34,364 bases of DNA from Candidatus Caccomonas pullistercoris. GTDB lineage: Bacteria > Bacteroidota > Bacteroidia > Bacteroidales > Bacteroidaceae. The notes below the pieces were generated by a model. The model did no database searches. It was not told the origin of the DNA and saw only the letters and a program-made list of their open reading frames with translations. Shown piece after piece: positions 16,471-16,562 of the stretch (position 1 is its first letter; each line of letters starts with the position of its first letter). The stretch covers positions 1 through 34,364 of the forward strand of contig DVNY01000160.1 of the NCBI GenBank assembly GCA_018714085.1, given 5' to 3'. Made by a program: the position numbers and the translations under genes.

Positions 16471-16562
16471 CGCTTTGACAGAATTTTCTGTCGCTGCGAC
16501 AGGAATTTCTGTCAAAGCGACAGGATTTATCGTGCCGGCTGTCAGTGACGGACAAGCAGGAT
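16471..16562. repeat. Intergenic 21-bp periodic dyad repeat array (site C)
   Basis: GACAGAATTTTCTGTC (16477), GACAGGAATTTCTGTC (16498), GACAGGATTTATCG (16519), GTCAGTGACGG (16541): spacing 21, 21, 22. Perfect 13-bp outer inverted repeat CGCTTTGACAGAA / TTCTGTCAAAGCG. Confidence 0.85.

What the first reader, a model, noticed from the sequence alone, without database searches (positions are those of the whole stretch)
16471..16562. A dispersed intergenic repeat family with ~21-bp helical period and internal dyads (best copy, site C)
Seen directly: three GACAG starts at exactly 21-bp spacing (16477, 16498, 16519) plus a degenerate fourth at 16541. Each unit is itself a dyad (GACAG-N6-CTGTC), a second dyad centre lies between units (CTGTCGC-t-GCGACAG), and a 13-bp perfect inverted repeat encloses the first two units. 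Related arrays occur in three other intergenic regions of this one window (57-165, 9596-9662, 26272-26335). 21 bp is about two B-DNA turns, so all half-sites would face the same side of the helix. Inference: either cooperative sites for a dimeric DNA-binding or nucleoid protein, or a REP/BIME-like non-coding mobile repeat that also forms RNA hairpins. I do not know a described family with this consensus.
Basis: partly seen in the sequence, partly recalled or inferred. Interest (0 to 1): 0.8.

Follow-up and report, generated by a model that had tools for sequence, protein, structure and literature searches.

The report
Species-specific 21-bp repeat arrays
This gut-type Bacteroidales genome carries hundreds of short arrays of 15-bp words spaced by 6-bp A/T-rich linkers, exactly two DNA turns apart, mostly just after genes but sometimes read in frame inside core genes; sister species keep the same spacing and often the same sites but use different words.

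Summary
The arrays alternate 15-bp words (C…G, often GACAG/CTGTC-ended) with 6-bp A/T-rich linkers at a strict 21-bp period. About 150 occur in 708 kb (roughly one per 4.6 kb). Over half of intergenic regions of 150 bp or more hold one, usually just 3' of a gene. They are not strictly intergenic: some are read in frame inside core genes (AroA, IspG, IF-2, Rho), and the AroA copy is an insertion absent from about 50 congeners. A word-blind pattern finds the same design at high copy in at least seven congeners and in none of 394 other sampled Bacteroidales genomes. Each species has its own words: G000 and sister G016 share 3 of 500 and 64 distinct words, yet array positions at orthologous 3' ends are conserved (p=5e-5). 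No RAYT transposase was found in seven array-rich genomes, so this is not a REP/RAYT family. Best reading: a dispersed, concertedly evolving repeat system of REP/RPE-like kind, propagated by an unknown factor that works on DNA with 21-bp phasing, and partly co-opted as bidirectional terminators. A dimeric nucleoid or regulatory protein with evolving specificity is the main rival. New variant of a known kind.

The parts
16465..16529 (.). Site C array: words 16467-16481, 16488-16502, 16509-16523; A/T linkers 16482-16487, 16503-16508, 16524-16529; starts about 130 bp after the recG stop
   Evidence: sequence; profile score 47.0; RNA fold z -7.6
16470..16520 (.). array-level palindrome of site C: 14-bp perfect outer arms, inner CTGTCGC-T-GCGACAG
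   Evidence: (I6, 25-nt arms, 92%)
52..122 (.). array: CTATCCGGCTGACAG gaaaaa CAGGTGCTGCGACCG tccatc CTGTCCGGCTGACAG aaaaaa CGGTCAGTAGTGACC
   Evidence: profile score 49.4; sequence
125..180 (.). weak continuation of the first array in a register shifted by one base
   Evidence: profile score 20.4, below the threshold used for counting
9584..9665 (.). array: CTGCCAGCCGTCCCG tcaaac CTGTCACTGCGACAG gatttc CCGGACGGCTGGCCG
   Evidence: profile score 49.1; sequence
26251..26345 (.). array: CGGGAACTGCGACAG gaaaaa CTGTCGCAGTGACAG gacaga CGGAAGCAGTTTCCG tttttc
   Evidence: profile score 40.0; sequence
14229..16334 (+). recG, upstream neighbour of site C
   Evidence: NCBIfam RecG, E 2e-261
16798..18132 (+). 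NADP-specific glutamate dehydrogenase, downstream neighbour of site C
   Evidence: NCBIfam, E 2e-283

Best explanation
The arrays are a dispersed, self-propagating or gene-converted repeat family. Each genome holds several hundred arrays of 2-6 words of 15 bp separated by 6-bp A/T-rich linkers, so that dyad axes fall about once per helical turn and units repeat every two turns. Shown: copies spread to new sites, including in frame into conserved genes. Shown: arrays are found at orthologous sites in sister species while their words differ between species. Inferred: words are overwritten within each genome by copies from other arrays (concerted evolution). Inferred: the agent that copies or recognises them is a DNA-binding factor, not a RAYT, that requires 21-bp phasing. 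Inferred, with partial support: at gene 3' ends the arrays are tolerated and partly co-opted as A-stem-T bidirectional terminators. Inside genes they are tolerated because the unit is 7 codons long and mostly free of stops in one frame on both strands.
For: Copy number and strict phasing. Insertion: the AroA array is absent from all congeners matched, including sister G016, and present in a protein 88% identical but absent from ones 73% and 69% identical. The IspG array is present in G000 and G016 but not in the other congeners aligned. Host-gene identities. Position kept, words replaced: 9 of 22 versus 5 of 98 orthologous 3' ends carry an array in G016, p = 5e-5, with only 3 words shared; two intergenic examples in full; IspG DNA alignment. 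Same design, other words, in G020, G008, G048, G047, G005, G045; none of 394 other Bacteroidales above 7 hits. Whole-array copies between loci in G016, 82-92% identical over 127-234 bp. 3' bias 49 of 60. Stems in 43 of 85 intergenic versus 2 of 20 in-gene arrays. Open frame.
Against: No transposase, terminal repeat or target duplication was identified, and no strain-level presence/absence polymorphism could be examined. Concerted replacement rests on species about 72% identical at protein level (median), so insertion hot spots reused independently would look similar. The strict phasing is more than a passive repeat needs. The UppS and ArgC 'in-gene arrays' may be chance matches, since those proteins show no clear extra segment against their families.
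Confidence: 0.5

Rival explanations
1. Binding arrays for a dimeric DNA-binding, nucleoid or supercoiling protein. Dimers bind each word on the same helix face and oligomerise along the 21-bp register; the protein's specificity changes quickly, and all sites follow by selection.
For: Exact two-turn spacing in at least four species with different words, and in an unrelated word family, TTCACNNNGTGA, in G000 and G002. Positions conserved between species. About one array per 4.6 kb, reminiscent of BIME density (from general knowledge).
Against: Within a species words vary widely (500 distinct words in G000), which is loose for a specific site. The AroA site arose recently and is missing in about 50 congeners. 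Conserved core genes gain arrays in frame, which a regulatory site does not need.
Confidence: 0.27
2. A family of bidirectional intrinsic terminators, multiplied for transcription termination.
For: Close to stop codons (median 42 bp) in tandem pairs. In convergent pairs the stems are flanked by A-rich left (3.9 A vs 1.0 T) and T-rich right (3.9 T vs 0.9 A) linkers. Terminator-like shape at site C.
Against: No strand preference in tandem pairs (sense 25/60, antisense 30/60). Array folding no better than randomly assembled words (72 of 147). 20 of 47 divergent regions also carry arrays. In-gene arrays cannot be terminators. Termination does not need a 21-bp register.
Confidence: 0.12
3. REP/REPIN elements mobilised by a RAYT (Y1 HUH) transposase.
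For: Short palindromic words, inverted doublets, intergenic 3' location, high copy number, species-specific sequence, as for REPINs (PMC3116915).
Against: No REP-associated transposase match in G000, G016, G020, G008, G048, G005 or G045 (NF047646); no Y1_Tnp match in G000, G016, G045 or G014 (PF01797). No GTAG or CGTC tag at unit ends.
Confidence: 0.05
4. DNA-uptake signal sequences.
For: Short words with a phased A/T tract, frequent inverted pairs near gene ends, some in coding DNA.
Against: No single conserved core; word diversity is high and arrays are tandem. Competence genes were not examined.
Confidence: 0.04

Closest known systems
Rickettsia palindromic elements (RPE; Ogata et al. 2000, described in PMC10969869)
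   Same: Palindromic elements of about 100-150 bp inserted in frame into unrelated core genes as well as elsewhere; translated as tolerated segments.
   Different: RPEs are families with one conserved sequence each. Here the unit is a 21-bp module with species-specific words, mostly intergenic.
REP / BIME / REPIN with RAYT (PMC3116915, PMC3733652)
   Same: High-copy short palindromes, inverted pairs, mostly extragenic, species-specific sequences.
   Different: No RAYT found, no GTAG/CGTC tag, tandem 21-bp register, in-frame genic copies.
BrickBuilt MITE of Porphyromonas gingivalis (PMC4596501)
   Same: Bacteroidales; intergenic tandem array with a unit of about two helical turns (23 nt).
   Different: 19 copies, one conserved unit, leader and tail with terminal inverted repeats, strictly intergenic, no linkers; not palindromic words with A/T linkers.
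Intrinsic (Rho-independent) terminators, including terminator-like repeats such as SPRITE
   Same: Stem plus A/T tracts at gene 3' ends, clearest in convergent pairs.
   Different: No sense-strand bias, phased multi-unit arrays, present in genes and divergent regions.

Membership tests
REP/REPIN with RAYT | RAYT (Y1 HUH transposase) encoded in the genome | tested here: not met
   NF047646: no match in the seven array-rich genomes G000, G016, G020, G008, G048, G005, G045; PF01797: no match in G000, G016, G045, G014. Genomes 81-95% complete. Array-rich G047 has matches below the curated cut-off.
REP/REPIN with RAYT | 20-40 bp palindrome with a GTAG or CGTC tag | tested here: not met
   Dominant words of G000 carry neither tag at their ends.
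REP/REPIN with RAYT | Inverted doublets in extragenic space | tested here: inconclusive
   Inverted word pairs in about half of tandem/convergent arrays, but direct pairs are as common.
Rickettsia palindromic element (kind) | In-frame insertion in unrelated protein-coding genes, absent from orthologues | tested here: met
   AroA insert absent from congeners; IspG insert only in G000 and G016 among those aligned; IF-2, Rho, DnaX carry in-frame arrays.
Rickettsia palindromic element (kind) | Sequence homology to a known RPE family | not tested
   No RPE sequences were fetched; unrelated sequence expected.
BrickBuilt MITE | 23-nt conserved unit with leader/tail and terminal inverted repeats; strictly intergenic | tested here: not met
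   Period 21, variable words, genic copies; no shared flanks seen, though flanks were not aligned systematically.
MITE in general | Target-site duplication and terminal inverted repeats matching a transposase | tested here: inconclusive
   The G000/G016 empty-site alignment is too diverged to read a duplication.
Intrinsic terminator | Stem followed by a U-tract on the sense strand of the upstream gene | tested here: not met
   Sense 25/60 versus antisense 30/60 in tandem pairs; the A-stem-T shape is clear in convergent pairs only.
Known structured RNA family | Rfam match at the arrays | tested here: not met
   No Rfam hit in the window at the arrays.

The most novel reading that the evidence does not exclude
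A previously undescribed propagation system, specific to part of one Bacteroidales genus, spreads and homogenises helically phased 15+6-bp word arrays across the chromosome. Its specificity changes with each species, so hundreds of dispersed loci are rewritten in concert while keeping their positions and 21-bp phase, and it writes new in-frame segments into core proteins.
Probability: 0.35. Interest if true: 0.9.

Novelty: new variant of a known kind. Interest (0 to 1): 0.75.

Why it matters
Dispersed bacterial repeats are usually defined by sequence and explained by a RAYT or a parent insertion sequence. Here the conserved property is an architecture (15 + 6 bp, two helical turns), the sequence turns over between sister species at fixed sites, and no RAYT was found in most array-rich genomes. 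That would be a clear case of genome-wide concerted evolution of short dispersed repeats, and it makes the question 'what reads or copies the repeat?' testable. The in-frame insertions into AroA and IspG, and the arrays in IF-2 and Rho linkers, also show repeat DNA supplying new protein segments to core genes.

Tried and rejected
REP/RAYT: rejected by two family searches. Directional terminators: no strand bias, and arrays fold no better than random assemblies of their own words, although convergent arrays do look like bidirectional terminators. Known Rfam RNA: none. Phage carriage: no IMG/VR contig holds the dominant G000 double word, a single exact pattern only. Named GTDB loci around RecG: scanned 0.99 Mb, architecture pattern absent. 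Assembly fold-back as the cause of a long palindrome at contig C13: complementarity does not run to the contig end. The recG-gdhA interval could not be compared in G016, because a different gene follows recG there. A first alignment of AroA and IspG loci failed because loci were not in the same orientation and was redone. Gene calls come from a simple home-made hexamer caller.

Full report
OBSERVATION. Site C reads CGATCGCTTTGACAG-aatttt-CTGTCGCTGCGACAG-gaattt-CTGTCAAAGCGACAG-gattta (16467-16529), between recG and a glutamate dehydrogenase gene, both on the + strand. The three other arrays in the window are also real. The region folds with z = -7.6, and the GACAG-N6-CTGTC motif is far above chance in the window (9 against 0.83 expected, up to 1 mismatch).

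GENOME-WIDE. The genome (G000; 2.15 Mb, 86.5% complete, about 60% GC, a Bacteroidales MAG to judge by its small SRP RNA) has 121 exact motif copies against 4 for the reversed control. In 708 kb, spacing of GACAG/CTGTC peaks only at 21, 42 and 63 bp, with the matching 10/11 and 31/32 bp peaks of the dyads. A self-similarity scan that assumes no motif finds 51 arrays at lag 21 and 0-2 at every other lag from 12 to 39. The unit is a 15-bp word beginning with C and ending with G, plus a 6-bp A/T-rich linker. A strand-symmetric profile finds 153 arrays at score 25 or more (21 in the reversed sequence, which keeps the A/T phasing), usually 3-5 units long, about one per 4.6 kb.

CONTEXT. Of the intergenic regions at least 150 bp long, 52 of 96 tandem, 23 of 33 convergent and 20 of 47 divergent ones hold an array. 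In tandem pairs the array is closer to the upstream stop than to the downstream start in 49 of 60 cases (medians 42 and 165 bp; p = 8e-7). Twenty arrays lie inside well-supported genes, far fewer than the 88% coding fraction would give, but in frame. They include AroA, IspG, IF-2, Rho, an ABC-F protein and, in G016, DnaX. The unit is 7 codons. Sixteen of the 20 use one codon phase, and that phase is open on either strand in 86% of intergenic arrays too. In-gene arrays rarely contain inverted word pairs (2 of 20, against 43 of 85 in tandem/convergent regions) and almost never give a hairpin-plus-T signal on the sense strand (1 of 20, against 15 of 20 antisense). UppS and ArgC are doubtful cases.

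INSERTION AND EMPTY SITES. Searching 58 congeners with the AroA protein, residues from about 253 to 285 (the array) are skipped in nearly every other genome matched, including sister species G016; the alignment of 29 of them shows a clean extra segment. One exception, G032, has an unrelated longer segment there. A database protein 88% identical keeps the insert while proteins 73% and 69% identical lack it. So the AroA array is a recent gain. The IspG array is shared by G000 and G016 only, among those aligned, at the same place and frame, but G000 has CTGTCAGCCGTCCCG-type words and G016 CAAGTACTACGACAG-type words.

SPECIES-SPECIFIC WORDS, SHARED ARCHITECTURE. G016, G047, G045, G020, G008, G048 and others carry arrays with the same 15+6 architecture but their own words. 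A pattern that ignores word content, CTRN9YAG-N-WWWW-N-CTRN9YAG, finds 139 (G020), 93 (G016), 88 (G008), 62 (G048), 51 (G000), 40 (G047), 40 (G005) and 14 (G045) copies, controls 0-2; most other congeners have none or a few. Among 394 other Bacteroidales genomes the maximum is 7, at the level of scattered matches. The 21-bp register is strict in G000, G016, G020 and G008. Between G000 and G016, 3 distinct words are shared out of 500 and 64, yet arrays sit at the same orthologous 3' ends far more often than expected (9 of 22 against 5 of 98, Fisher p = 5e-5), and both fully comparable intergenic loci with a G000 array hold an array in G016 as well, with different words. Whole-array copies between loci exist in G016.

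MECHANISM. Shown: dispersal into new sites, arrays at orthologous sites across species, different words per species at those sites, strict phasing. Inferred: words are replaced by copying between arrays, and the agent reads DNA with two-turn phasing. A RAYT was not found in seven array-rich genomes, G000, G016, G020, G008, G048, G005 and G045; G047, also array-rich, has matches below the curated cut-off of the RAYT model. Terminator function is at most secondary: convergent arrays with stems are flanked by A-rich left and T-rich right linkers, divergent ones are not, and tandem arrays show no sense bias. The main rival is a dimeric DNA-binding or nucleoid protein whose specificity drifts; the present data cannot exclude it, and the phasing favours it. 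In-frame gains in core genes and the wide word diversity within a species favour propagation.

COMPARISON AND NOVELTY. By kind it is closest to RPEs (in-frame insertion), REPINs (inverted doublets, extragenic) and BrickBuilt (Bacteroidales two-turn tandem unit), and it fails a tested defining feature of REP/RAYT and of BrickBuilt (for the papers). I found no description of such a family in six literature searches, which cover open-licence papers only. I class it as a new variant of a known kind (dispersed palindromic repeats); if a dedicated factor exists it would be more than that.

LIMITS.

Noticed in passing
L124 5163-5246, L150 16691-16775, L156 292-373, L160 3174-3262, L036 about 16483-16565, L041 about 1141-1223 (own genome): A second, unrelated 21-bp-period array family with ends AAAGTCYRTTTCAC...GTGAAATAGACTTT and about 4 units of TTCACNNNGTGA; 37 forward pattern hits in G000, 70 in congener G002, none in the 56 other congeners. 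More MITE-like, with uniform length and fixed ends.
   Followed up: partly
L274 3783-3910 (G031); L293 661-740 (G043): Similar arrays with a 22-bp period in two congeners (for example CTAGGAGCGCACCTAG + GAAAAA), so the period is not 21 in every species.
   Followed up: no
window 30859-30924: Five to six tandem copies of an 11-bp A/T-rich unit (AATCATAYTCT), near a tRNA gene.
   Followed up: no
window 18150-18209: A 27-bp perfect inverted repeat with a 6-nt loop between the convergent gdhA and mutL genes; probably a bidirectional terminator.
   Followed up: no
L032 about 18430-18610: A near-perfect palindrome with arms of about 85 bp built from 21-bp units, near a contig end.
   Followed up: partly
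L331-L334 (G017), L335-L338 (G053): Other 21-bp-period arrays with quite different words (CATCCCATGGATCG; GTTTGN9CAAAC), hinting that the two-turn period is wider in the genus than the CTR...YAG words.
   Followed up: no
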